Below the pieces are notes generated by a model, which saw only the letters and a program-made list of their open reading frames with translations, made no database searches and was not told the origin of the DNA. A stretch of DNA of 64,000 bases from Owenia fusiformis (taxonomy: Eukaryota; Annelida; Polychaeta; Sabellida; Oweniidae). Positions 382-54,619 of the stretch are shown here, piece by piece. Each line of letters starts with the position of its first letter. Position 1 is the stretch's first letter. Where the stretch lies: positions 7,767,525 to 7,831,524 of the forward strand of contig CAIIXF020000004.1 of the NCBI GenBank assembly GCA_903813345.2, read 5' to 3'. The translations under genes and the position numbers were made by a program.

Positions 382-881
382 GATCAAATCTTAACTATAA
401 TTTTTTTCATTGTTACTCATGGTTTGAATTCCTCCACAGATTATTTACTGAGCAATAATCCAATTTATAACTAACCAAATAGATCAAATCTTAACTATAA
501 TTTTTTTCATTGTTACTCATGGTTTGAATTCCTCCACAGATTATTAACTGAGCAATTATCCAATTTATAACTAACCAAATAGATCAAATCTTAACTATAA
601 TTTTTTTCATTGTTACTCATGGTTTGAATTCCTCCACAGATTATTAACTGAGCAATTATCCAATTTATAACTAACCAAATAGATCAAATCTTAACTATAA
701 TTTTTTTCATTGTTACTCATGGTTTGAATTCCTCCACAGATTATTGACTGAGCAATTATCCAATTTATAACTAACCAAATAGATCAAATCTTAACTATAA
801 TATTTTTCATTGTTACTCCGGGTTTGAATTCCTCCACAGATTATTGACCGTCCAATTATCCACATTCTGACACAGCATCTT
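382..881. repeat. 100-bp tandem repeat, five copies
   Basis: Copies starting with GATCAAATCTTAACTATAA occur at 382, 482, 582, 682 and 782, exactly 100 bp apart. The first four are nearly identical and the last diverges at its 3' end. No coding potential was seen. Confidence 0.95.
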
Positions 882-16821: not shown

Positions 16822-19800
16822 CTATCGCATGAAGATATCTGTATTACGGAAACTAGAATTATCCCTGAAAATATAACAACATTCAAATTAACGTCAATCA
16901 ATCTACAATCCAGGAATATTTCATATAAGAATAAATTTTGAGATAGGCTCAGTATAGTGAAATCAATAGCCAATCAACTTGAGTCCGCAGCTTAACAAAA
17001 TCAATTATAGAAAATCTACAATGTACTGCTTATCCCTATATTTTTTGCAGCATATTTCTCTTGATTTTAGGAAGTTACAGCCACTCTACTGTTGCCGTAG
17101 ATTAAAAATGACGGAGGTTTAAATCTGATGTAATAGCCATACAAATTACTTGTTACTGTAAGAGATCAATACATGTAGGTATTCCTAAAGAGAATATTTT
17201 GTAAAGTGCTCCCAAAATTACAATTAAATTAAATAAATTATTTTAGTTTGTCATTAAATGCTGTCTATCTAAAGGCACTGGTGGAACGAAAACATTTTTG
17301 AAAAAATTGCTATACCTGTACACGTTATTTACTGGTACAAAATTAAGTATGAAAGCAGGTATAGCAATTTTCAAAAATATTTTCCTTCCATCGGTACCTT
17401 AACGTGAGATTTTCCACTTACTTTAAACTGTCAGTGTGCGTCTTGTATTCCATGATAGTGTTTGGAGGGAGGTTCAGTACTCGTTTCAATGTGTCCCTAA
17501 TACGTGATGTTGTATGGATATCACTGGCTGTTCTGTTCCAAAGTGATAGAATGTCCTCCTATAAAATAATGAGAAGACAATTAAGAGAATGTGTCCCTAA
17601 TACGTGATGTTGTATGGATATCACTGGCTGTTCTGTTCCAAAGTGATAGAATGTCCTCCTATAAAATAATGAGAAGAGAATATTCTCAAGAAAATTATTA
17701 GAGGTAAATGTAAGTTATAACTTGGTAGTGTTTAAACATAACATTCTTTTTAACCTGTAATAGCCTATTAATAATCATATTGAGTCGTTATTCATTGAGA
17801 AAATCATATTCTATAAACAAAATGTCAGTACTTTTGACTTCAAACGATAAACCCCTATGACAAAGAATGCCGAATGCTGAACACCAACCGCCATCCACAA
17901 AAAAAACAATATGTCTCCGCTAGTGATGGTGACATAAAAACCATTGGCTACTCTGCAACCATGGCCTGCCTAATCAAATCATCCCAATTAGTCATACATA
18001 CCTGATATCTTATAGAAATAACAGCTCCACATATCTCCTCTCCAACCATAAATTGCTCTCCAACCATGGCCATTATCAAATTCTCCCAACTCCTGGATGC
18101 AATTCCCTTCTTTAACCTGATGATCCATTTGCCACCATGTTTATTAGCTTCATCCTGAAATATATGAGGTACATTTGAGGTAAGGACTGAAATATATGAG
18201 GTACATTTGAGAAATGTGCATTTTGTGACTTACATTTGAAATATGCATTTTATGGGCCGAAATAAATGAGGTGTATTTGAAAAAAGTGCATTTTTGTGAG
18301 GGCTGAAAATATGAGGTAAACATAAGCAGCACTTTCCATAAGGGCAGAAATATTAAATGGTACATTTGAAGTACATTTCTCTGTGCGTGTTTACAACTTA
18401 CTTCCCACATTGGCCTTATTCCCTCTTTGAAGATGTGATAGTCGCTGTGTCCTGATAGATCACATGGTCGCACCATGTGACTGTACGCATGATGAAACTG
18501 CTCCACCTGGTGGCAAAATAGAGAACTTCTAATAACAATTTATTAATCATTGCAAATTGTACAACAAGGCATTAACATGACAAAATGTCACCACCTAGTT
18601 GCTCACAATATTGTTACAGACACTGATCACCAACTGCCGTCACAAAAAAAACGGAGGCCATAACAATATGTCACCACTTTTTGGTGGTGACATAAAGATC
18701 AAAAAGACTAAACAGCAACATCAAGTGAAAGAAGATGCATAGACATAAAGTTTCAGGATGATCCTTCCGATTTGCAATTCTGTTTTCAGTTAATAAAATA
18801 AGGCTTGAAGAATTGATTGGCATGAATTAGAAAATATTGTATCAAACATTTTACACTCTCTTATTTCTTATTCCTTCAAATCATGATTATATATTTTCAG
18901 ACTATGTTCTTCAATAACAGGAATACAAACTAAAAAGAGATTCTCACTGAGGCACACGTAATGACGTGTTTGAGATTCTGGTCATAACTGGACCAGCTTT
19001 GTTTTCCAGGAGTCCTTCTTGAGAACCAAAATGCATAGTTGAATTGTAAAGGATGTTCACCAGGTCCTACTTTCACGACCTGAAATCAAACAAAAACATG
19101 AAATGGGTGTATGACAAATGAAGAAAATGACAATGATATTGAAAACATGATAATTGACATTTATGTGCGTTTGAGCACAGCGATATAAGCTCATAAATGA
19201 TTTCTTTAGGCGTCGTGTCAATGGAACAGGTGTTCGAGTTGGCGTTGAGTTGTTTTGCATGAGTGTATGTTGGAACGGAGTGTAACTTCATTCTGAGCTT
19301 TGCCACACGTAACACGAGACAGTTCATTTTAATTAATTAAATCAAGATTTTGAACATTTACATGTCTTGATTGATCGCGTACCTTTACGCATTAATTTGA
19401 GGTTCTTAATGGCCGGGATCAATCAATTTCGATAAATGTAAAGGATGTGTCCGGGTATATGCCCTTTTGGTCCCTCAGTCAAATGTATGTTAAATATGTT
19501 TTTTATTACTGTCCTAGTTATATTTGATAAGTATATTTACTTTTTTACGAGTTTTGATGCATAATTAACCCCCTGCTGAGAGTCAGAATAAGTATCTTAA
19601 CAAAAAAAAAATAGTCATTATCATAGAATAAAAACATCAATGGCAACATGTATGACTTGCAAAGAAGAAATAACTTAAGACCCATGAAGAATTTAAAAGA
19701 AAATCATATTTTTGAAATATATTTAAGGATTAAATTTTTTTTCAAATTTTTGAATTTCCCGCCAGTTTAATTTGAAGGGGGAAAAACAAGATGGCTGCCA

Positions 19801-41300: not shown

Positions 41301-44300
41301 GAACAGTAGTCACTTAACTATGTGTGTTATTTTGACTCTGAGGGAGGGGGGGGGGAGGTTGGTAATGGTAGGGGGTGGAGCCTCAAAATAAATTACTTCA
41401 AAATAGCTTCCCTGAATCCAACCCCCTTAAAATTCAATCTAATTTTTGTTTCGTCAACACTTCTACTAATGCCAGGCAAGTCTTAATAAGATTTGTCAAG
41501 TTGTATCTGGCATATACCAAGTGTTATTTTGAAATTATGAGACTTGTTTGTGAAAAAAATGTTTCTGATTGATAATACCTAGTTGTTATTTCAAGGCATC
41601 TTGCAAATGCATTACAGAAAGATGTGATTGCCACTTTAAAAGAAATGATAATTCTTAATGAAGTTTTAGGCAGCCTCCCCCATCTAATGATCTAAATTAC
41701 TGTACCATTTTCTTTAGAAATTATGAAGGTACAGATTCTCATCAGGTCGTTCAGATTCCCAACAGGGCATTCAGATTCTCAGCAGGTCGTTCAGATTCTC
41801 AACAGGTCGTTCAGATTCCCAGCAGGTCTTTCAGATTCTCAGCAGGTCGTTCAGATTCTCAGCAGGTCGTTCAGATTCTTAGCAGGTTATTCAGATTCTT
41901 AGCAGGTTGTTCATATTCGCAGCAGGTCATTCAGATTCCCATCAGGTTGTTCAGATTCCCATCAGGTCATTCGGATTCTTAGCAGGTCATTCTGATTCTC
42001 AGCAGGTCGTTTAGATTCTCAGCAGGTCGTTCAGATTCCCAGCAGGTCTTTCAAATTCTCAGCAGGTCATTCAGATTCTCAGCAGGTCGTTCAGATTCTC
42101 AGCAGGTCATTCATATTCTCAGCAGGGCATTCAGATTCCGAGCAGGTCGTTCAGATTCTTAGCAGGTCATTCATATTCTCAGCAGGGCATTCAGATTCCG
42201 AGCAGGTCTTTCAGATTTTCATCAGGTCATTCAGATTCCCATCAGGTCATTCGGATTCTTAACAGGTCATTCAGACTCCCAGCAGGTGGTTCAGATTCTC
42301 ATCAGGTCGTTCAGATTCTCAGCAGGTCGTTCAGATTCTCAACAGGTCGTTCAGATTCCCAGCAGGTCTTTCAGATTCTCAGCAGGTCGTTCAGATTCTC
42401 AGCAGGTCGTCTTAGCAGGTTATTCAGATTCTTAGCAGGTTGTTCATATTCCCAGCAGGTCGTTCAGATTCTCAGCAGGTTGTTCAGATTCCCAGCAGGT
42501 CTTTCAAATTCTCAGCAGGTCATTCAGATTCTCAGCAGGTCGTTCAGATTCTCAGCAGGTCATTCAGATTCTCAGCAGGGCATTCAGATTCCGAACAGGT
42601 CATTCATATTCTCAGCAGGGCATTCAGATTCTGAGCAGGTCTTTCAGATTTTCATCAGGTCGTTCAGATTCCCATCAGGTCATTCGGATTCTTAACAGGT
42701 CATTCAGACTCCCAGCAGGTGGTTCAGATTCTCATCAGGTCGTTCAGATTCTTAGCAGATTATTCAGATTCTTAGCAGGTCGTTCATATTCCCAGCAGGG
42801 CATTCAGATTCCCAGCAGGTCTTTCAGATTCTCAGCAGGTCGTTCAGATTCTTAGCAGGTCGTTCATATTCCCAGCAGGTCTTTCAGATTCTCAGCAGGT
42901 CGTTCAGATTCTTAGCAGGTCATTCATATTCCCAGCAGGTCATTCAGATTCTCAGCAGGTCATTCAGATTCTCAGCAGGTCATTCAGATTCTCAGCAGGT
43001 TGTTCAGATTCTTAGCAGGTGGTTCATATTCCCAGCAGGTCGTTCAGATTCTCAGCAGGGCATTCAGATTCTGAGCAGGTCTTTCAGATTCTTAGCAGGA
43101 TGTTCAGATTCTTAGCAGGTCGTTCAGATTCCTAGCAGGTCTTTCAGATTCTCAGCAGGATGTTCAGATTCCCAGCAGTTTGTTCAGATTCCTGTCATTC
43201 AGATTCTGAGCAGGTCTTTCAGATTCTTAGCAGGATGTTCAGATTCTTAGCAGGTCGTTCATATTCCCAGCAGATCGTTCAGATTCTCAGCAGGGCATTC
43301 AGATTCCGAGCAGGTCGTTCAGATTCCTAGCAGGTCTTTCAGATTCTCAGCAGGTTGTTCAGATTCCCAGCAGGTTGTTCAGATTCTTAACAGGTCGTTC
43401 ATATTCGCAGCAGGTCATTCAGATTCCTAGCAGGTCCTTCAAAGTCTCAGCAGGTCGTTCAGATTTTGAGCAGGTAGTTCAGACTTAGCAGGTCATTTGG
43501 ATTCTCAGCAGGTCTTTAGATTCTCAGAAGGTCTTTCAGATTCCCAGCAGTCATTCGGATTCTCAGCAGGTCGTTCATATTCTCAGCAGGTCTTTCAGAT
43601 TCTCAGTAGGTCGTTCAGAATCTGAGCAGCTAGTTCAGATTCCCAGCAGGTTATTCGGATTCTCAGTAGGTCAATCAGATTCTCAGCAGGTCGTTCAGAT
43701 TCTCTGCAGGTCTTTCAGATTCTCAGTAGGTCGTTCAGAATCTGAGCAGCTAGTTCAGATTCCCAGCAGGTCATTCGGATTCTCAGCAGGTCATTCAGAT
43801 ACTCACCAGGTCTTTCAGATTCTCAGCAGGCCATGTTTAAGAGAATAAATGTAAAGCAGCTACAATTTTCTATACTGTTCATATATTTTATATGCCTTTA
43901 CAAAGTTTGAATTTTTATTCTACAGCTTGTAATGGCGCGAATGATACGAATACGACAGTCGCACCTACTACAACAACCAAGGTCACCACAGCCACACCTA
44001 CTTCAACAACCGTGGTCACCACAGCCACACCTACTTCAACAACCGTGGTCACCACAGCCGCACCTACTTCAACACCCAAGGTTACCACCCAAAAACCCTC
44101 AACTGCTAAGCCCACTACCCAGAAGCCCACAACCCCAAAACCTACTACCCAGAAGCCTACAACAGTGAAGCCCACTACCCAGAAGCCCACAACAGTCAAA
44201 CCCACTACCCAGAAGCCCACAACAGTCAAACCCACGACCCAGAAACCCACGACAGTCAAACCCACTTCCCAGAAGCCCACAACAGTCAAGCCCACTACCC

Positions 44301-47300
44301 AGAATGCCACAACAGAGAATCCAACCACAGAGCCAATGACTACAATGCCACAGACAACTGTTGCGGTATGTTTTTTCTATCAATAGATTTTATTGACCAT
44401 TAGAAACAAAAGGTACAAAAGGTACTGATTGTAATATATGAGAGACCTAATTGTGTCAGACATGAATAAGCGAACCTCGCTGGTATATCATACTTTTTTA
44501 TACAAGTTTTTATACAAGTTTTTTGTTATATATTATTCACATTGTTTTTTCAGAGCCAGTTTTCATTCTCTGAGCAGTTTTGTCCAGTTTAGTCTATCTC
44601 CCTCTATGCAAGCCCTTTTTTCAGTTACTGTATTGATCCAAGTCACCCAGGGGGAAGTTTATAATATATTATAAGTTATTGAATGATTTGAAGTGCAATA
44701 CAGGATATATTCTGCTCGAGAATTCCGTATTGGAACGAGAGGAAGTTGAGTGCCAATACAGTATATCGAGACAGAATATATCCTGTATTGCACTTCAAAT
44801 CATTCAATAACGTTTTTATCATGTGATCCTCTGTATTGCTTCCAAGATTGTCCCCTCCGTACTGATATTTTCTCTATTGCGACGGAGATGATCAACGGGG
44901 ACAATCTCTGTAGCAATACAGGCTGGTACAGCACAAGAACTGACCAATCAGAGGGCTTCATTTTACAGATCATACGATAAAGGGCTGTCTTTTGGTGCTG
45001 TTCTCATTTGTCAACACCTTCCACTCACTCATTGAATCTGTCCCAGATAGGTTTTTTAAATGTTAGTAGACCATTTTGAATGAATTGCTCAGAGATTAGA
45101 AAATAATGTGAATCAGAAATTCTGAAAATTGTCTATAATTTTTTAGCCAAAGAAACATCAACTATAGTTGTATCGAGGAATTTATGTAATTTAAGATGTT
45201 TTCATGTAACAGGTTCTTGTTTTAATCATTTTGCATAATTTATCTATTTAAAGTCCTTGAAGTCGTATGTCTAGACAATTTAATTGGAGTTTTGTCCTAA
45301 TTCATAACTATTGTTTATTTTTTATACTTTATTTGTTAAAAGAGGCTCAACTCCCCAGAGAATACAGCTTCATTTATTTGTGCAATAGTAATCTCATAAC
45401 ACTCTTGGTGGCCTGTATTAGAAACTAAGGGGAGGCATCAAAAGTTCGATGTCGGATAGAAAACTAAATAAATCTAGTTAGGGGGGAGGGGGTTCAAACC
45501 CATTTCAGTTTGCTATACGACAAATTTCAACATTTTAAATTTTGACTCAGAATGCCTTGGAATATTTTAAAAATAAAGATTTTACCTGATGCTTTCTTTG
45601 TCAAGATCATTCCAATGGATTCTATTCTATCAATAGTTGTTAAAAGCTCCAAATTACGATAGGAATTAACAAAAACTAGATCGTGTTTAGCAATAATTTT
45701 TCAAATTCTCAAACCGGAAGTCAGCGATCAACTTTCATGGTATTTAATTTTGGGGGGAGGGGGGGGTCAGAGTCAAACTAGATTTATTTAGTTTCCGATT
45801 CGACATCGAACTTTTGATGCCTCCCCTAAGTCTCACATTTTGTTTTTTAACTCAAATGTTTTGTTATATGAAAGATTTGTGGATAATCTTCACTTCTGTC
45901 TAAAATACAGTAATGCTAAGGGTAAAAGGCTATTAAAAACAGTGCTAGCATTTCATACTCTAAAATGTATGTTTTCCTTTTTAGCTTTTGAATGTCACAT
46001 ATGTTGACTCAATATAATAATATTTACATATGGTGTCATCGTAACTCTGGAAGTTTTAGTGAGACGTACAGTTACAGGGTTCTGTTCATTTTTACAAAAA
46101 TAATATTAGAATATCTTGTCCTCCATGAGGCATTTCCTGCTTTCGGAGATGAGGTTCAAATCAAGGAGGATTGGCAGCCATTATTTAAACTCGATACTCC
46201 ATTGCTCGGCATGGAACAATTTAGTAAAACTGTTTCTATAAAAGTCTTTTTAGACCAAGTATTTGTTAGAAGATGGACATTTCAAATATTATGGTCATAT
46301 ACAAGTTTCCTTGGCAGTTCGTCTCCAAAATATGAGTAATATTGTTACCAAATTGGTCCACGCTGGGCAACAGAGCATCAAGTTTGAATAACGGCTTCCA
46401 GTCCTCCTTGAATTCGAATATGATATTCATACAACTTAAAAAAATTCAACACTATTTTTGAAACATAAATTAATAGGGCCCTTTAGAGTTATATATGATT
46501 TTGTTTTACAGATTAATCCGTTGATGGTTACTGGGTAGTAGGTTTGGTGTTTGAGAGTTTCTGGATAATAGTTATAGTTTTATGATTAGCTGTAGTCTTA
46601 ATGCTTGAGTTTTAAGGGTTTCTGGGTAATAGGTTTATGTGTTATTGATGGTTTCTAGGAAGTAGGTTTATGTACTAATTAGGGTTTCTGAGTAATATGT
46701 TTATGTACTTATTAGGGTTTCTGGGTGATAGGTTTATGTACTGATGAGGGTTTCTGGGTAATAGGTTTATGTACTCACAGGGGTTTCTGGGTAATAGGTT
46801 TATGTGCTAATGAGGGTTTCTGGGTAATAGGTCTATGTACTAATGATGGTTTCTGGGTAATAGGTTTACATACTCATGAGGGGTTCTGGGAAGAAGTTTT
46901 AGTCATCGAGAGTTTCTAGGTGGTTTCTAACTCTTGTTAAAATTGCCTGCCAAATTGGATTCAGTGCATGTAAATTAGGGATGTAGGGTCTCTGGGAAAA
47001 ATGTTTAGTCATTGAGGGTTTCTAAGGAGCTTTCTAACTCTTGTTAAAATTGCCTGCCAAATTGAATTGCATGTAAATTAGGGACGCATCTTTGCAGCCT
47101 ATCATAACAGCTCTCTCTATATAATCTAATGTAAACATTTGTTGACTATTGTTGTATATTTTTAATTGTATTTATTGTGACATCTGTTAAACCAGTGAAA
47201 TTACAATTACTAATCTCAGTGTGTCTTGCACATCTAAATTAGTTATATGCAATTGCATTTTACAAAAATTGCTTCGAATGCTATGTTGTATTATGCTTTT

Positions 47301-50300
47301 GATTAGATGTAGTTATATGTACAGTGCTTGTATATGATGTGTGTGGTGTAGATTATATATAATGAATAAATCTTAAGACCTTTTATATTTAAATTTAAAC
47401 TAATTTAATGGCTTACATGATGTTATAAATTATTGAAGACATCAGTTAGTTAAGTGTTTATTTAAGAAATATAGACCGAAGAGTAGGGGTAATATCGTTG
47501 AATACACCCCGTAGGGCTAGGCACAAACGTTTTCTGTTCGAAAGCTTTCTGTTTCGGTTTGAAAGCTTTTGTGCCTAGCCCTTAGGGGTGTATTCGACAA
47601 TATTACCCCTGCTCTGAACATGAAAACTCACCAAAATGTTTCGAATATTCATCATGGTCCGCCATTACTACGGCTGCCATTATGACGTCACATATTACTC
47701 ATATTACCAGGGGTATTGTTCGCAAATATACCCGGGTGAAATGTTGACTTTGTTTACAGTTTATAGAAGGCGTGAATACAGTCATGTTCGAATATTAGAT
47801 ACATTCATAAGCCATGATTGTCAAATAAATTTCATATTCATACTGTAGTATTTTAAGATCAGAGCCTTTGAAGTATGTTACCCACGCACTCTAGTTTTCT
47901 GGATGAAATTTTGCCTAGAATTTTTCATGAAAAAAATGTAACTATTTTGCTAGATTCTGCAAGTACTCCGCTTGCATATTTTGTGATCGATACCTCTGTA
48001 GATTTTAAGGAGACATCGCTTAGGTATGCTCCGATAGTTTGAAAATCTACAGAAATTACAAATTCCACAATAATTCTACTTAAAAATTATTTCTGCATAT
48101 TTTACGGAATCTGGAAATTTAGCAGATATTTCACAATTTATCATAGAAAAAATTCTATGATGTGTGTTAAAAGTAGTTAATTTTCCTAAATTTGAGGCTC
48201 AGTTTAAAGTGAAATTGTCCTTCAATGTTTGTGATAACTCAATGTGCTTTCTCTATTAGACTTGAATAAACTCCCTGATGTTTTGGCATTTTTTACAATT
48301 TCGAATGTCAAATCAATGTCTGTATACTTCATTCCTTGCTAGTTCTACTCTTCTATTTATCCCAACGAACGAAGTTCGTTAGGGATATAGTGAAGCCCTC
48401 CTCTGTTTTTTTTCAAGATGGCCGCCGCTTTAAAACTGACGGGACTTTTTCGCAAAAATCATAAATTTTTCATTCTAAACCAAAGTAATTAATATTATTG
48501 TTTGAAATTTCGGTAGTGTATTCACAACATTTATCTATTTCACATATATTCCGTGTTTTTCATCCTGACCCCCAGGGGCCATGTATGGGGGGACAGGAAA
48601 ACAGAAATTTTCGTTAATTTTTAGATCTCTCTGAAGTATAGCTTTATTATACTCAAATGAAAGGCAATTAAGAGTAGATTGCAAATATTGTATCTTTTTT
48701 CTGATTCGAGCCTCGTAAAATTCAAAATGGCCGTCTAATGTACGATTTCGCAATAATTTTTCGATCCCTTCAAAGTATGGCTATATTATACTCAAATTGG
48801 AGTAGATCACAATTATGGTATTATTTTTCAGATTTGTACCTCAGAAAATTCAAAATGGCTGCTTTGCAGGAATTCGCAATTCTAAAATCTAATTTTTTCA
48901 TTTTCAACCAAAGTAATGAGTATAATTGATTGGAATTCGGTAATTGATATTTTGTTCGTTGGGATTTGCTACTCCGCGGAGTTGCCATTATTGTTCCTCT
49001 TTGACCAGTGGTGAAGCCAGGAGATTGAAAAAGGCGAGGCAAGTCAAATTTTGGGCTATTTCCACACTTTCAAATTTGTGAGTGAATATCTATTTGTAAA
49101 ATTTTGGTGAGGCTCTTGCCTCACCTTGCCTCATCTGCCTCACCTACTTCACGCCTGGCTACACCTCTGGTGGCTTCTTTTCCAATGGTACTTATTGGTT
49201 ATTTCTTCATATTTCAGCCAACAATGCCTCCCCAACCTGCCACTGGTAACTACAGTTTCCAGGACCCTAAGACAAAGGTAGTCTGCATGTATGCAGAATT
49301 CGGAGCCAGATTCAATGTGACCTATATGATGAAGAATGGCAAGGTGAGTTTTTAAATTGTAAATAAGTTCTGTACAACTACAGGTAAAAATGCGCATAAA
49401 GCAAAAATGGATGAATTGGAAGGGTACAGTTTTTAAACAAATCTTTCAAGAAAGTTCAAATAATTGACTAACTTTAAGATAGTTAAATAACATAATCTCA
49501 GAATGGTAAAATGATTCACAACAATTCAAAAATGGCTCATTTGATCTTCTTCCAAACTAGGACTCATTTTAGGGGGTTCGATGACCTAGGTTGACCAACT
49601 TTTGGGCAACCATCTTGTTTTCTGGCAGCCATTTTAGAAGTTTTTTGACAAACCACTAGTGAGATTTTCTTTAAATTATTGCACTTATGAGAAGAAGTTC
49701 TACAGTTCATTAACCTAGTGATTTTTTGTTTATGTCATGTTCTAGGTTTTATCTCATGTTATTCACCAATTTTGTTTAAATATATTAATAATCGTTTCAT
49801 TTAAATAATTCCAGAATAACTATTCTGTCACGGACCTTCCCACAACAGGCGTAACAACAACAACGTCTGAATGCGGAAATACCACGCAGAAGCTCATAAT
49901 GAAATTCATGGGTTGGACATACCAGCTGTGGTTCGTGAAGAGCGAGGATGGCAATACATACTCTGTGAATACTACCGCTCTTACCTACAAGATTGATGGG
50001 AAAAAATTCCCTAATGCTAACGCAACTGGTTAGTAAAGTTTACATGAGGCCATGAAAAAATTAATTTTTATGTCACCCCAGAAGCGTTCGGCTATTGAGG
50101 TTTGGTGTTCGACAGTCGGTGCAATGTCTGTAACAAATGGCAGGTTGTATTAGCCTACTTGACAACAGGGAGCAATCCAACAGTTGGCCAATCTTGCCCT
50201 GTTTTTTATATATTCACATATTTTTCAGGCACGAATAACACTGTGTTACCCTACTTGTCAACAGGTAGCAGTCCAACAGTTGGCCAATCTTGCCCTGTTT

Positions 50301-53300
50301 TATATTTATTCACATATTTTTCAGGCACGAATAACACTGTGTTAGCCTACTTGTCAACAGGTAGCAGTCCAACAGTTGGCCAATCTTGCCCTGTTTTATA
50401 TTTATTATCCCATCGAACGAAGTTCGGAGGGATATAGGGAACGCCTCCGTCCGTCTGTACGTACGTCCGTCCGGGCAATACCTCAAATACCGTTGGCCCG
50501 ATTTTGTTCATATTTTGTACACATATACCCAATGGGAGTAGAAGTTCTGCTCAGAAACCGATTTTCAAAATGGCCGCTCATTTAAAAATGGCGGCCATTT
50601 TAGTGCCGATTTTACAGTAATTAAGGGACTGCATATAAAACTGTAATAGCAATATGTTTTGAATGTAAAAAAGTTATATAGGACATTGATTAAGCTAGAA
50701 ATGTAAATACAGAAGAAATACATGGCAGCCATCTTGAAAAATGGCCGCCTTTACACATCATTTTACGATTTTTGCTGTAACTTGAAAAGTAGTGGAGCAA
50801 TTTTGTTCAGATTTGGTATGTGAATACTTTAAGCATGGCACAATGTCTAATGACATTTTTGGTAGTAGGCGGCCATTTTGAAAAATGGCCGCCATTTTTA
50901 CATGTGTTATTTAACATTTTTTACTGTAAGTCAGAAAGTAGTGGAGCGATTTTGTTCATATTTGGTATGTGAATACTTTAAGAATGGCCCAATGTCTAAT
51001 GACATTTTGGGTAGTAGGCGGCCATCTTGAAAAATGGCCGCCTTTGCACGTCATTTTACGATTTTTGCTGTAACTTGAAAAGTAGTGGAGCGATTTTGTT
51101 CATATTTAGTATGTGAATACTTTAAGCATGGCCCAATGTCTAATGACATTTTGGGTAGTAGGCGGCCATTTTGAAAAACAGCCGGCATTTTTATGTGTGT
51201 TATTTTACACTTTTTACTATAACTCAAAAAAGCAGTAGAGCGATTTTGTTCATATTTTATATGTGAATACTATAAGCATGGCACCCTGTCTAATGACACT
51301 TTGGGAAGAAGGCAGCCATTTTGAAAGATGGCCACCGTTTTTACGTTTTTTACTGTAACTTGAAAAGTAGTGGAGCGATTTCGAATGGTGGCCTTTCTTA
51401 TGGGTTTTATTTTATGATATTTGCTAGGCTATATATTTTGTTTGTAAAAATGCCAGCCATTTCTGTTCGATGGGATTCGCTACGCATTGGCGTTGCCATT
51501 GTTCTGGTTCACATATTTTTCAGGCACGACCAACACTGTATTAGCCTACTTGTCAACAGGTAGCAGTCCAACAGTTGGCCAATCTTACCCTGTTTTATAT
51601 TTATTCACATATTTTTCAGGCACGAACAACACTGTGTGAGCCTACTTGTCTACAGGTAGAAGTCCAACAGTTGGCCAATCTTGCCCTGTTTTATATTTAT
51701 TCACATATTTTTCAGGCACGAACAAGACTGTATTAGCCTACTTGTCTACAGGTAGAAGTCCAACAGTTGGCCAATCTTGCCCTGTTTTATATTTATTCAC
51801 ATATTTTTCAGGCACGAATAACACTGTGTTAGCCTACTTGTCAACAGGTAGCAGTCCAACAGTTGGCCATCTTGCCCTGTTATATATATATTCACATATT
51901 TTTCAGGTACGAATAACACTGTGTTAGCCTACTTGTCAACAGGGAGCAGTCCAACAGTTGGCCAATCTTGCCCTGTTTTATTTATATTTATTCACATATT
52001 TTCCAGGCACGACCAACACTGTAAGCCTACTTGTCAACAGGTAGCAGTCCAACAGTTGGCCATCTTGCCCTGTTATATATATTCACATATTTTTCAGGCA
52101 CGAATAACACTGTGTTAGCCTACTTGTCAACAGGGAGCAGTCCAACAGTTGGCCAATCTTGCCCTGTTTTATATTTATTCACATATTTTCCAGGCACGAC
52201 CAACACTGTAAGCCTACTTGTCAACAGGTAGCAGTCCAACAGTTGGCCATCTTGCCCTGTTTTATATATATTCACATATTTTTCAGGCACGAATAACACT
52301 GTAATAGCCTACCTGTCAACAGGGAGCAGTCCAACAGTTGGCCAATCTTGCCCTGTTTTATATTTATTCACATATTTTTCAGGCACGAATAACACTGTTA
52401 GCCTACTTGTCAACAGGGAGCAGTCCAACAGTTGGCCAATCTTGCCCTGTTTTATATTTATTCACATATTTTTCAGGCACGACCAACACTACGTTAGGCT
52501 ACCTGTCAACAGGGAGCAGTCCAACAGTTGGCCAATCTTGCCCTGTTTTATATTTATTCACATATTTTTCAGGCACGAACAACACTGTGTTTACCTACTT
52601 GTCAACAGGGAGCAGTCCAACAGTTGGCCAATCTTGCCCTGTTTTATATTTATTCACATATTTTTCAGGCACGACCAACACTACGTTAGGCTACTTCTCT
52701 ACAGGGAGCAATCCAACAGTTACCCAGTCTTACATGTGTAACTCTGAGCAAGATGTCAGCCTAGGAGGAGGTCAAGTTATGTTGAAGACATTCAACTTCA
52801 GGGCTCAGGCATTTAGAACCACAAACACTACTGGCTTCACTGGAGATAGTGAGTAGTTTATCACATGCTATTTTTTAATAGGCATACCACTTTGTAATTT
52901 GAGGTAAGGCTATAAGAATTAAATTCTCTGTTTTGCGTCCTGGCAAAATCCAAATCATGCAAGGGTACAAGGAAAACAAACACAAACTCAAGAAAAAACA
53001 CAAACTTGTTTGCTGAGAAATGTATACATTTTATGGGCATTAAAAGGGATGACATACCAATTTGCAGTGATACAAACACAGATCTGTACATTTTATACAA
53101 TATATTTAAATATAGATGTTATTCAATGGTAAAAATAAGAAAATACACAATGTATGCCAACGTAATCAATAACACTGTCAATTTTGACGCTCATCAATTT
53201 ATCCTCCATTTTGTCTGATTCTGATTGAATAAAATGCGATGTTACTTTCGGACCCTTTTGGCTGCTATTTGGATGTGTTTGTTTTTTCTGATTTATTCAA

Positions 53301-54619
53301 AATCGTGCAAGCAAGGGGACGCAAAACAAAGAATCTAATTCTTACGGCCTAATGAGCATTTGGATATATATATGATTTGAGGTAAATCTATAAATATATG
53401 TAGCACTCATGTTTTTGTCGTTTTATCTAATTACTCCCTCATATTGGGTACGATGAGCAATTTCCTAACAGCCTTTTATATTTCATGACCATCAGATTGA
53501 TAGTTACAATGTTACAGCACTTTAACCTTTACCATGCTGCCTTATTTCAGCAAATATATCCCACGCAACTGGCTTATTTTTCAAAGAGTGCAAAAAATGA
53601 TATGCCTGGACTAAATAATTAATATCTCAATAACTACTGAATGAATCTGGATAAAATTTTCACAAAGGGAAGATACAGTGGCCTGGCTCATGAAAAAAAT
53701 GTTCTCATGAATTTATTCGTACATTAACATGTACACCATTTTGTACGATTCGTTAACTAAAAACGACTAAAACACTGTTTAAATTGTTGAATTGAGAATT
53801 ATTTTTCGAAATATCGCCATTTCTAGGTCAACAGGAAGTCATGTTAGGCACTGAATAAATCGGGCAATCTAATTGGACAATACGAATGGCGCGAAAAAGT
53901 AAAGTTTTTAAAAGTTTGAAATCGGGCGTACGGGTCCGCCGGCAGTTGTGAGAGACATTTTAGTCTCGGCGGACTCGTCCGCTGGCAGCACGCTAAAGGT
54001 TAAACAACATTCTCTAGTGGCCACTATTGCGCTGTAGCAAACCTGCAAATGTCATCGAAAATGTCCATACCTGTGAGGATATTCCAAAGATATGAGTGTA
54101 CAAGAATACCTTAGGACAACTGCAGACCTCAAAAGGGAGATCATCCGTGTCATTCAGGCCATACCTGCTAATGAATGCATTCGGGTCATTAACAACTTGT
54201 ACAGGTTTCCCCACAGCGCAATAATGGCCACACCCTGAGCATGTTGTTCTAAGTGCTTTTACATTGTGACTACCTGTCAGATGGTCATGAAATATGGTAG
54301 GCTGGTAGGAAATCTAATGATGTACAAATGTGTAAAATATCTGGGAGTAATTTCCTAAACTGACCAAGATTTGAGGAAGTGCAGTGTTGCCATTTTTTGA
54401 CCACCCTGTATGTGATTTGAGTTAATTCTGTGATTTGAGGTTAAGTCCCTAAAGGGTGCATTGTTACCAATTTCAGCTGTTGATTGCGCCGCAGATGACT
54501 CAACAGGAAACATTGTTCCCATCGCAGTAGGAGCTGCCCTTGCTGGTCTCGTGATTATCGTACTTATCGCTTATCTGATTGGTCGACGAAAGAGCCGCAA
54601 GGGATACGAATCAGTGTAA
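32301..54619 (+). CDS. LAMP/CD68-like lysosome-associated membrane glycoprotein, complete
   Basis: Six exons: 32301-32346, 43926-44365, 49218-49343, 49815-50028, 52669-52848 and 54477-54619. All are GT-AG and in frame, 382 residues. The signal peptide MKLLCAIFLFSAIVIA is split by intron 1. Residues about 17-160 are a Thr/Pro mucin-like stalk with repeated KPTTQKPTTV. One LAMP luminal domain follows, with four cysteines (VVCMYAEF, SECGNTT, YMCNSEQ, VDCAADD) and many N-x-T/S sites. Then come a transmembrane helix (IVPIAVGAALAGLVIIVLIA) and the short tail ending KGYESV, a GYxxV lysosomal sorting signal like LAMP1's GYQTI. One domain plus mucin stalk resembles CD68 more than two-domain LAMP1. Role: heavily glycosylated lysosomal membrane protein. 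Odd: introns total about 21 kb and include repeat arrays, one made of exon 5's own start. ATG at 32301 was chosen for the signal peptide. Confidence 0.92.
33198..33217. repeat. Perfect 20-bp palindrome
   Basis: GCGCATGGAATTCCATGCGC equals its own reverse complement. Confidence 0.95.
34125..34945. repeat. Tandem array of about 86-bp units, ten copies
   Basis: GGATATCGTCCCTCATCTTT recurs at about 34139, 34222, 34308, 34395, 34481, 34567, 34653, 34739, 34828 and 34910, each followed by AAATCAAA-TTAAAGGGATA and CCAAGCTAGCGCAAAT. The minus-strand ORF over it is repeat-derived. Confidence 0.93.
35634..35766 (+). repeat. Full copy of the GTCACC dispersed repeat
   Basis: TTATGTCACCAACAG, AAGTGGTGACATTGTAATAG, a centre with GGTTGGTGTTCGGTGG, then GGCAGGTGGTGACATTTTGC. 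Best reference copy of the family also seen at 17868, 18584, 24764, 26861 and 50068. Confidence 0.82.
36258..36865. mobile_element. 0.6 kb foldback element with about 200-bp arms
   Basis: TAAAGGAATATTCCTTGCCA at the left and its complement at the right; arms stay recognisable inward through TATGGTAGCTATAA, TTTGCTAAACATGG, AGATGGCAGC and GATGTCATC. No ORF. Confidence 0.88.
36941..38183. repeat. 1.24 kb near-perfect palindrome (foldback element)
   Basis: Left arm 36941-37518 and right arm 37604-38183 are reverse complements with only a handful of differences, around an 85-bp centre. Outer ends are TTAGTATAGTAGGAACAAGG and its complement. The centre itself resembles an inner segment of the arms (TTATTTGGTCT...GATATTGGTA...TTAAACCTC). 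Open frames in the arms are not supported as genes. Confidence 0.95.
38308..39810 (+). pseudogene. Decayed Q/P/H-rich repeat-protein ORF in LAMP intron 1
   Basis: Before the array, an open frame from 38308 reads DTDSESYDYTTVAERLSSDT, then SSCSEFDYLESLISEPLLPL and TQQAQPQQSQAQTQQ, with protein-like acidic/serine composition. After the array, in the same repeat frame, it reads HQSSYSESYRKIEVTAPIIS, then MTPNNSPQKAPAKRILTD up to a stop at 39808-39810. Between them, units encoding QPQQSHVQPQQSHAEP carry repeated TGA codons (TCA changed to TGA in CAGTGACAAATGAC) and small frame-shifting deletions (CAGTCATGCTGA for CAGTCACATGCTGA). No family recognised and no start codon or exon limits established; TTCTTACACAG at about 38432 could be an acceptor. 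I infer a repeat-bearing exon or gene fragment that has degenerated. Confidence 0.5.
38440..39690 (+). repeat. 21-bp minisatellite in about 123-bp higher-order units
   Basis: Basic unit CAACCCCAACAGTCACATGT(A). Higher-order units repeat the string TGACAAATGACAATGCAGG then CTCAACCTCATCAGTCACAT about nine times. It spans the ORF remnant above. Confidence 0.93.
41731..43830. repeat. 2.1 kb minisatellite with 20-bp unit, about 100 copies
   Basis: Consensus TTCAGATTCTCAGCAGGTCG, with alternating variants (CCC/CTT for CTC; CATATT for CAGATT) and longer block duplications (for example about 41990-42200 resembles 42440-42640). As 20 is not a multiple of three, the ORFs across it are chance. Confidence 0.96.
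44675..44811. repeat. Foldback MITE with perfect arms of about 40 bp
   Basis: GTTATTGAATGATTTGAAGT then GCAATACAGGATATATTCTG and exact complement at 44771-44811. In LAMP intron 2. Confidence 0.92.
44832..44920. repeat. Foldback element next to the previous one
   Basis: TGTATTGCTTCCAAGATTGT then CCCC pairs with GGGGACAATCTCTGTAGCAATACA-type sequence ending 44920, with few mismatches. Confidence 0.8.
45429..45826. mobile_element. Harbinger-like MITE, TAA target duplication
   Basis: GGGGAGGCATCAAAAGTTCG and its complement at the ends, arms about 50 bp, TAA on both sides (45426-45428, 45827-45829). A 3-bp TAA target fits PIF/Harbinger. Confidence 0.85.
46157..46416. repeat. Foldback element in LAMP intron 2
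   Basis: TCAAATCAAGGAGGATTGGC then AGCCATTATTTAAAC at the left and its diverged complement at the right. The 115-codon ORF at 45992-46339 runs across it and is not supported as a gene. Confidence 0.75.
46540..46920. repeat. Tandem repeat of about 33 bp
   Basis: GGGTTTCTGGGTAATAGGTT then TATGTACTAATGA, about ten copies, outer ones degenerate. An ORF with GFWVIGLC repeats follows only from the 33-bp period. Confidence 0.9.
47481..47614. repeat. Foldback MITE
   Basis: GAGTAGGGGTAATAT...GAATACACCCC...AGGGCTAGGCACAAA and complementary arm; inner GAAAGCTTTC copies. Confidence 0.85.
48359..48996 (+). mobile_element. Helitron-like element, copy 1
   Basis: Begins ATCCCAACGAACGAAGTTCG and ends with a hairpin ACTCCGCGGAGT followed by TGCCATTATTGTTC, very like copy 2 at 50407-51509. 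Inside are degenerate repeats containing AAAATGGC, ATCAT and CTATATTATACTCAA. No ORF for a Rep/helicase. Confidence 0.65.
49005..49170. repeat. Short inverted-repeat element before LAMP exon 3
   Basis: CCAGTGGTGAAGCCAGG at the left and complement of CCAGAGGTGTAGCCAGGCG at the right, with several GAGGCAAG/TTGCCTC copies inside. It ends about 47 bp before exon 3, so it lies against the acceptor region. Confidence 0.7.
50068..50147 (+). repeat. Truncated copy of the GTCACC dispersed repeat
   Basis: TTATGTCACCCCAGAAGCG...GTTCGACAGTCGGTG...GTAACAAATGGCAGGT, cut off exactly where the exon-5-derived array begins. Confidence 0.72.
50150..52668 (+). repeat. 96-bp array built from the LAMP exon 5 start and its splice acceptor
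   Basis: Each unit is GCACGAATAACACTGTGTTA, a segment encoding AYLSTGSSPTVGQ, then TTTATTCACATATTTTTCAG. The TTCAG/GC acceptor recurs at 50228, 50324, 51523, 51619, 51715, 51811, 51906, 52006, 52097, 52193, 52286, 52382, 52476, 52572 and 52668; most spacings are exactly 96 bp, a few are 91-100. The last acceptor belongs to the unique exon 5. A 96-bp unit is 32 codons, so units can be read through in frame. A Helitron-like element interrupts one unit. Confidence 0.96.
50407..51509 (+). mobile_element. Helitron-like element, copy 2, inserted in the LAMP array
   Basis: Array unit TTTATT/CACAT is broken here and TT occurs at both junctions. The element begins ATCCCATCGAACGAAGTTCG and ends with hairpin ACGC-ATTG-GCGT, ten bases, then CTGG, fitting the Helitron 3' rule (hairpin near CTRR). 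Inside are about five tandem units with AACTTGAAAAGTAGTGGAGC, GATTTTGTTCATAT, CAATGTCTAATGACATTTTG and GGCGGCCATTTTGAAAAATG. No Rep/helicase ORF, so non-autonomous. Confidence 0.75.
52908..53349. mobile_element. Harbinger-like MITE in LAMP intron 5
   Basis: GGCTATAAGAATTAAATTCT at the left and complement of GGCCGTAAGAATTAGATTCT at the right, followed by TTTTGCGTCC in both arms, with TAA flanking both ends (52905-52907, 53350-53352). Confidence 0.85.
54104..54408 (+). pseudogene. 3' remnant of a mariner transposase
   Basis: An open stretch EYLRTTADLKREIIRVIQAI then PANECIRVINNLYRFPHSAI ends at TGA 54236-54238. The pattern RVIQAIPxxxxxRVINNLYR is the transposase C-terminus of mariner-like elements. 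A terminal GACCACCCTG at 54399-54408 matches the CAGGGTG ends at 16445 and 29195. The 5' end is missing. Confidence 0.75.

What the first reader, a model, noticed from the sequence alone, without database searches (positions are those of the whole stretch)
50150..52668. LAMP exon 5 acceptor and exon start amplified into an in-frame 96-bp array with 15 splice acceptors
The array unit is the end of intron 4 plus the start of exon 5, including the polypyrimidine tract and AG. Every acceptor is in the same phase as the real one, and most units are exactly 32 codons with no stop, so reading from an upstream acceptor through later units adds whole 32-residue blocks. From the acceptors at 52572 and 52476 the frame stays open into the true exon (+32 or +64 residues); a 94-bp unit then breaks it. 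This offers a natural test of how the spliceosome chooses among near-identical acceptors and a plausible route to protein length variation.
Basis: partly seen in the sequence, partly recalled or inferred. Interest (0 to 1): 0.78.

Follow-up and report, generated by a model that had tools for sequence, protein, structure and literature searches.

The report
Tandem array of decoy splice acceptors
In the lysosomal-membrane gene LAMP of an animal that is almost certainly the marine worm Owenia fusiformis, the start of one exon and the splice signal before it have been copied 14 times into the neighbouring intron; this is a known kind of repeat first described in lancelets, it recurs in other genes of this worm, and it offers natural tests of how cells pick the right splice site.

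Summary
Intron 4 of a LAMP gene holds 14 decoy copies (plus a 5' partial one) of the intron's last ~31-36 bases and exon 5's first ~60-65: with the true site, 15 near-identical acceptors. Only the two decoys nearest the exon read openly through exon 5 (+32, +64 residues); the other 12 meet stops. The array is not kept in frame: 7 of 13 uninterrupted units are 96 bases and stop-free. It is a "mirage", a minisatellite of an intron/exon boundary, known from amphioxus (PMC3087553, passages). Three of four published Owenia fusiformis primer strings match this genome exactly once, including the convergent syt1 pair, so this is an annelid. Surveys found eleven more: 4 in 70 kinase loci, 5 at 49 CCT exon hits, 1 in 19 ABC loci, 1 in the window's 4EHP gene; these are lower bounds. 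Unit length is divisible by 3 in 5 of 12; CCT arrays touch exon edges about as often as random placement predicts (5 versus 3.5). Most likely these are neutral tandem duplications whose decoys are ignored because the acceptor joined to the exon body is chosen. Splice use was not tested: no RNA was available.

The parts
49815..50028 (+). LAMP exon 4; donor CTG|GTTAGT follows
   Evidence: joins exon 3 and exon 5 in phase; PF01299 match 67 bits for the joined protein
50146..50228 (+). Partial first unit of the array, without its own acceptor
   Evidence: row u00, 87-92% identical to the other units
50229..50406 (+). Decoy unit 1 and left part of decoy unit 2 (decoy acceptors after 50228 and 50324; donor-like CAG|GTAGCA at 50264/50265 and 50360/50361)
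50407..51507 (.). 1.1-kb interspersed element inside unit 2: ATCCCATCGAAC...GTTCGATGGGAT inverted ends, 144-bp core repeats, apparent TT target; Helentron-like by recalled features only
   Evidence: the first 152 bases gave 40 matches, all of them the scored ones of 1034 candidates
51508..52668 (+). Right end of unit 2 and decoy units 3-14 (decoy acceptors after 51523, 51619, 51715, 51811, 51906, 52006, 52097, 52193, 52286, 52382, 52476, 52572), then the true acceptor tract ending at 52668
52669..52848 (+). True LAMP exon 5; its first ~60-65 bases are homologous to the exonic part of the unit
54477..54619 (+). LAMP exon 6: transmembrane segment and GYESV tail
   Evidence: PF21222, 64.3 bits
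17488..17681 (-). Second boundary array in the window: 100-bp unit x 1.9, acceptor side of a 4EHP (EIF4E2) exon (exon about 17422-17558; decoy copy begins at 17658)
   Evidence: PDB match to eIF4E type 2, E = 3e-21

Best explanation
The array is a mirage: a minisatellite made by repeated tandem duplication across the intron 4 / exon 5 boundary, probably homogenised by unequal exchange or conversion, and later split by a transposon. SHOWN from sequence: the copying, the loss of frame in many units, the transposon split, the higher-order pattern, the recurrence in other genes. STRONGLY SUPPORTED: the animal is Owenia fusiformis (3 of 4 primer strings). INFERRED: intron 4 (50029-52668) is removed as one intron, because acceptor 52668 is the one joined to the exon body and nearest the exon-5 donor at 52848/52849 (exon definition); the 14 decoys are ignored or used too rarely to matter, and the 32-codon unit is a coincidence of length.
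For: Unit lengths from 91 to 100, with frameshifts and an in-frame stop. 12 of 14 decoys lead to a stop before the end of exon 5, so the gene can work only if they are mostly skipped. Decoy splice dinucleotides are mostly intact: 14 of 14 in LAMP; by my hand reading, 42 of 47 pattern-matched decoys over 12 arrays. The same structure recurs: kinase loci L038, L041, L048, L074 (4 of 70), CCT loci L077, L079, L081, L083 twice (5 boundaries at 49 exon hits), ABC locus L090 (1 of 19), 4EHP. Placement fits a random null: 5 of 14 CCT arrays touch exon edges, 3.5 expected, P = 0.23; with period 40 or more, 4 of 11 against 3.2, P = 0.40. Unit length divisible by 3 in 5 of 12. Amphioxus mirages were reported not to disturb normal mRNA (PMC3087553 and PMC3902484, passages).
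Against: No RNA was examined, so which acceptor is used is unknown. Intact decoys prove little: at the mean divergence of 3.4% all 14 LAMP AGs would stay intact by chance with P = 0.38. Substitutions are clustered in the unit: 16 of 20 variable columns fall in one 41-column stretch of the exonic part (P = 0.005 by permutation, but the width was chosen after seeing the data; the exon/intron split alone gives P = 0.10); constraint on the rest of the unit, signals included, would also give this. The two frame-open decoys are exactly the two next to the exon. The exon 4/5 junction falls where the PDB LAMP1 alignment has gaps, a place that might tolerate extra residues.
Confidence: 0.78

Rival explanations
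1. One reading: acceptors 52572 and 52476 are used in some transcripts and give LAMP isoforms longer by 32 or 64 residues.
For: Both frames are open through exon 5; these two acceptors have the same 20-base core as the true one; the junction lies in a gapped, probably looped part of the LAMP domain alignment; unit 14 adds an N-N-T glycosylation motif (motif recalled).
Against: Each of the two units also adds a cysteine and intron-derived residues ending YLFTYFS to a domain with disulfides (disulfides recalled); frame is not kept in the rest of the array; chance that the last two units are both 96 bp and stop-free is about 0.3 at 7 of 13; unit lengths elsewhere show no clear preference for multiples of 3.
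Confidence: 0.09
2. New exon and intron birth: in units with CAG|GTAG(C/A)A the spliceosome takes the unit's acceptor and this donor, making 36-nt microexons (12 codons, in frame) separated by introns of about 60 nt, so LAMP length varies in steps of 12 residues.
For: 8 of 14 decoy units have the donor-like site; in units 1, 2, 3, 5 and 6 the microexon is 36 nt and stop-free. The layout, donor in the exonic part of one copy and acceptor in the intronic part of the next, is that of the RNA-supported potato RdRp intron gain (PMC4974935, section 5).
Against: Donor is weak: it lacks A at +4, G at +5 and T at +6 (consensus recalled), unlike this gene's own donors GTATGT, GTGAGT, GTTAGT, GTGAGT. Unit 4 has a stop, units 8 and 10 are 34 nt. 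60-nt introns and 36-nt exons are near the small limit (recalled).
Confidence: 0.06
3. Poison-acceptor control: upstream decoys compete for the donor and make transcripts with early stops, lowering or tuning LAMP output.
For: 12 of 14 decoys give stops; the first decoy is only 200 bases from the donor, a distance suited to intron definition (recalled).
Against: Nothing shows regulation; similar arrays in unrelated genes fit random placement.
Confidence: 0.04
4. Assembly artefact: false tandem copies.
For: Short tandem copies are a known weak point of assemblies (recalled); copy number may be off.
Against: Units carry private variants, a two-unit alternation (units 7-10) and a foreign 1.1-kb insertion; twelve boundary arrays in unrelated genes with periods from 21 to 154 bp.
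Confidence: 0.03

Closest known systems
Amphioxus 'mirages' (Adh3, globin BflGb6/BflGb9, TnC, PGBD5; PMC3087553 and PMC3902484 seen as passages; the original Adh paper, NAR 2002, PMC117041, is not held and was not read)
   Same: Minisatellite-like tandem duplication of an intron/exon boundary, with copied splice signals, at acceptor or donor side; most homogeneous inside the cluster, most diverged at its edges.
   Different: Annelid instead of cephalochordate; 14 decoys plus a partial unit against 6 and 3 repeat units reported for the two BflGb6 haplotypes; donor-like sites inside 8 units; split by a transposon.
[quoted passage not shown] PMC4974935, abstract and section 5)
   Same: Duplication spans 3' intron end and exon start; a GT in the exonic part of one copy faces the acceptor of the next.
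   Different: Many copies instead of two; potato has RNA and phylogenetic support for the new intron, here there is none.
Variable internal tandem repeats at exon-intron boundaries in human segmental duplications (PMC2812944, passages)
   Same: Minisatellite expansion at a gene's exon-intron boundary that can change splicing.
   Different: There RNA support exists for nearly all loci; here none was available, and the unit is longer than their 30-bp average.
Experimentally duplicated splice sites in globin constructs used to test scanning versus proximity (1980s work, recalled, not read)
   Same: Near-identical acceptors in tandem, so that choice depends on position.
   Different: Natural, with 15 copies, and recurring in other genes.

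Membership tests
Mirage (boundary minisatellite) | Tandem repeat unit spans an intron/exon boundary | tested here: met
   Unit = intron end + AG + exon 5 start
Mirage (boundary minisatellite) | Minisatellite-size unit (10-160 bp reported) in several copies | tested here: met
   96 bp, 14 decoys plus a partial unit
Mirage (boundary minisatellite) | Copies carry splice signals | tested here: met
   14 of 14 decoys keep the tract and AG
Mirage (boundary minisatellite) | Concerted evolution inside the cluster, edges excluded | tested here: met
   Units u01-u14 are 90-100% identical to each other; edge unit u00 is 87-92% and exon 5 is 76-87% identical to the units
Mirage (boundary minisatellite) | Normal mRNA splicing is not disturbed | not testable with these tools
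   No RNA data held
Mirage (boundary minisatellite) | Length instability between haplotypes or in soma | not testable with these tools
   One assembly only; the unit query matched at no other place in it (with that tool's caveats)
[quoted passage not shown]
   8 of 14 decoy units, 57-60 nt apart in 7 of them; in unit 2 they are 1163 nt apart because of the inserted element
[quoted passage not shown]
   No RNA data held
LAMP gene | LAMP luminal domain, transmembrane segment and short tail with GY..hydrophobic | tested here: met
   PF01299 67 bits, PF21222 64.3 bits, PDB 8fy5 E = 5.1e-26; tail GYESV

The most novel reading that the evidence does not exclude
Owenia carries thousands of mirages: a genome-wide natural library in which near-identical acceptors and donors are repeated 2 to 15 times beside their true exon, nearly all decoys are ignored by an exon-body rule, and in a few (such as the LAMP units with internal donors) new microexons and introns are now being born.
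Probability: 0.3. Interest if true: 0.75.

Novelty: new member of a known kind. Interest (0 to 1): 0.55.

Why it matters
Which of several equal splice sites is chosen, and why, has to my knowledge mostly been studied with made constructs. Here evolution has repeated the same acceptor 15 times with almost no local difference, so position and exon context must decide. In my gene samples such arrays turned up at 10 of 138 sampled loci or exon hits (4 of 70 kinase loci, 5 of 49 CCT exon hits, 1 of 19 ABC loci; not a random sample), in an annelid far from the lancelets where they were described, so the trait is not a cephalochordate oddity. That decoy splice sites persist intact fits the idea that they cost little and that local splice-site sequence alone does not define an exon. 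The layout also matches a documented route to new introns.

Tried and rejected
In-frame design of the array: rejected on unit lengths and stops. Special RNA structure of the unit: three units and the exon 5 head fold no better than shuffles (z from -1.17 to 0.46) and a 318-base stretch gives z = -1.77, so not pursued. Enrichment of arrays at exon edges: not seen. Amphioxus as source: rejected on the Owenia primer matches and 12 large contigs, although the elav1 forward primer did not match exactly. GFP family and COX1 as lineage markers: no hit, uninformative. A second LAMP gene: only a weak hit on C12 (E = 0.43), not followed. Searches for print on boundary arrays outside amphioxus, annelids included: I saw none for annelids in the listings; an earthworm metallothionein paper has minisatellites in introns (PMC12783039, passages), which from those passages is not the same thing. 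This covers only the open-licence library, and capped listings of it. Not counted as boundary arrays: a TAACA-type repeat inside the intron before an exon in L084, a 20-bp array with TTTCAG units in L031 whose exon I could not place, and an intron-only array in L086 that ends just before an acceptor.
Full report
WHAT IS THERE. The window lies at C4:7767525-7831524 of a 498,259,871-base genome. Exons at 49218-49343, 49815-50028, 52669-52848 and 54477-54619 join in phase into a LAMP protein (Pfam PF01299 67 bits and PF21222 64.3 bits; PDB LAMP1 E = 5.1e-26). Between exons 4 and 5 lies an array with a 96-base unit, split by a 1.1-kb element at 50407-51507. Fifteen acceptors match one pattern, 14 decoys and the true 52668; shuffled sequence gives 0.04 on average. 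In a whole-genome search all 15 matches of the unit were at this one place (that tool skips very common words).

FRAME. From each decoy I read on into exon 5. Only 52572 and 52476 stay open (+32, +64 residues). The other 12 reach stops. Unit lengths are 96, (unit 2 interrupted), 96, 96, 96, 95, 100, 91, 96, 93, 96, 94, 96, 96. Of 13 uninterrupted units, 7 are 96 bases and stop-free; unit 4 has a TGA. So 'in frame into the exon' holds only for the last two units.

HOW THE UNITS EVOLVE. Units u01-u14 are 90-100% identical to one another; exon 5 is 76-87% identical to the units and the partial first unit 87-92%. Units 7-10 show a two-unit alternation. The transposon sits inside unit 2, so the array is older than that insertion. 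Of 20 variable columns, counted over u01-u14 without the partial unit and without insertions, 16 fall in one 41-column stretch in the exonic part (P = 0.005, width chosen after seeing the data; exon/intron split P = 0.10). I cannot explain this; it could reflect exchange with the true exon, or constraint on the rest.

WHAT ANIMAL. Passages of PMC9977687 give Owenia fusiformis 505.8 Mb and 12 chromosome-scale scaffolds; here C1-C12 are 31.9 to 62.2 Mb. A passage of PMC8111721 prints primers for two Owenia genes. Of the four strings, three match exactly once: the syt1 pair faces each other 32 kb apart on C11, and the elav1 reverse string lies on C1; the elav1 forward string does not match. This is Owenia fusiformis or something very close to it.

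IS IT ALONE? No. I fetched loci of three gene families and ran Tandem Repeats Finder. Protein kinases: at least 4 of 70 loci have a boundary array. L074 is donor side, 80 bp, at least 8 decoys (the array runs off the piece). L038 is acceptor side, 86 bp, at least 3 decoys, with the true exon beyond the piece. L041 is acceptor side, 98 bp, 2 decoys. L048 is donor side, 54 bp, at least 6 decoys. Chaperonin CCT genes: 5 boundaries at 49 exon hits. These are L077 donor 154 bp, L079 acceptor 83 bp, L081 acceptor 86 bp, L083 donor 48 bp and degenerate, and L083 acceptor 30 bp. ABC transporters: 1 of 19 loci, L090, acceptor side, 21 bp, 2 decoys; this short, low-scoring one (score 73) I had first passed over and read only on a second look. 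In the window, a 4EHP exon has a 100-bp acceptor-side array. With LAMP that makes 12. In each array where the true exon could be seen the decoys lie on the intron side, as they must if the exon is to stay intact. Unit length is a multiple of 3 in 5 of 12 (96, 54, 48, 30, 21), close to chance. In the 68,308 bases of CCT loci arrays of period 25 or more cover 6,797 bases; 5 of 14 touch an exon edge against 3.5 expected under uniform placement, P = 0.23; with period 40 or more it is 4 of 11 against 3.2, P = 0.40. So this genome is rich in minisatellites, and in this small sample they fall on exon edges about as often as elsewhere.

MECHANISM. Best supported: tandem duplication across the boundary, then unequal exchange. 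The extra acceptors stay in the intron because the acceptor joined to the exon body, close to the exon 5 donor, is chosen. The first part follows from sequence. The choice of acceptor is inferred from the need to avoid 12 stop-bearing products, from mostly intact decoy signals (42 of 47 by my hand reading, counting pattern-matched copies only; the losses are 3 in L048 and 2 in L083), and from reports that amphioxus mirages leave mRNA normal (PMC3087553, PMC3902484, passages). Intact decoys do not by themselves prove neglect: at 3.4% divergence all 14 LAMP sites would survive by chance with P = 0.38.

A DETAIL WORTH TESTING. Eight decoy units hold CAG|GTAG(C/A)A. With the unit's own acceptor this makes a 36-nt segment in six units (five stop-free) and a 34-nt one in two; in the seven units not split by the element the next acceptor is 57-60 nt further on. 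This is the layout of the potato RdRp intron gain (PMC4974935, abstract and section 5). The donor is weak, so use is unlikely but not excluded.

COMPARISON. It meets the four features of a mirage that I could test; splicing neutrality and length instability were not testable. New here, as far as the listings of searches in one open library show: the annelid, the frequency in gene samples, the copy number and the internal donors. The first paper on mirages was not held and was not read.

VERDICT. A real structure, a new member of a known kind, in a lineage where I found no earlier report. The claim of protein-length variation is not supported by the sequence, though not excluded for the last two units; the claim that it is a natural test of acceptor choice is supported, and it extends to other genes.

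Noticed in passing
17422-17681 (-): A 4EHP (EIF4E2) exon has its acceptor and first ~70 bases duplicated once upstream (100-bp unit, decoy exon start 17658).
   Followed up: yes
50407-51507: 1.1-kb interspersed element with short inverted ends and 144-bp core repeats; 40 matches to its first 152 bases among the 40 scored of 1034 candidates. Helentron-like by recalled features, not tested.
   Followed up: partly
382-862 (+): 100-bp x 4.8 array whose unit contains CCTCCACAG, acceptor-like; no coding evidence seen in translations, so not counted as a boundary array.
   Followed up: partly
43955-44315 (+): The mucin-like LAMP exon upstream (exon 2 in my numbering) is itself a 30/33-bp coding minisatellite (TTQKPTTVKP-type repeats).
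   Followed up: no
window, all: Tandem arrays (period 25 or more, score 100 or more) cover 7,228 of 64,000 bases in 15 merged blocks.
   Followed up: no
50146-52668: Variable columns of the array unit cluster in the exonic part (16 of 20 within 41 columns); cause unknown.
   Followed up: partly
L048: A donor-side array in a kinase gene (MAP2K-like by recall) is itself interrupted by repeated inserts of roughly 100-140 bases with inverted-repeat-like arms.
   Followed up: no
L090:677-738: An ABC-transporter exon has a 21-bp acceptor-side array with 2 decoy AGs, showing that very short units occur too.
   Followed up: yes
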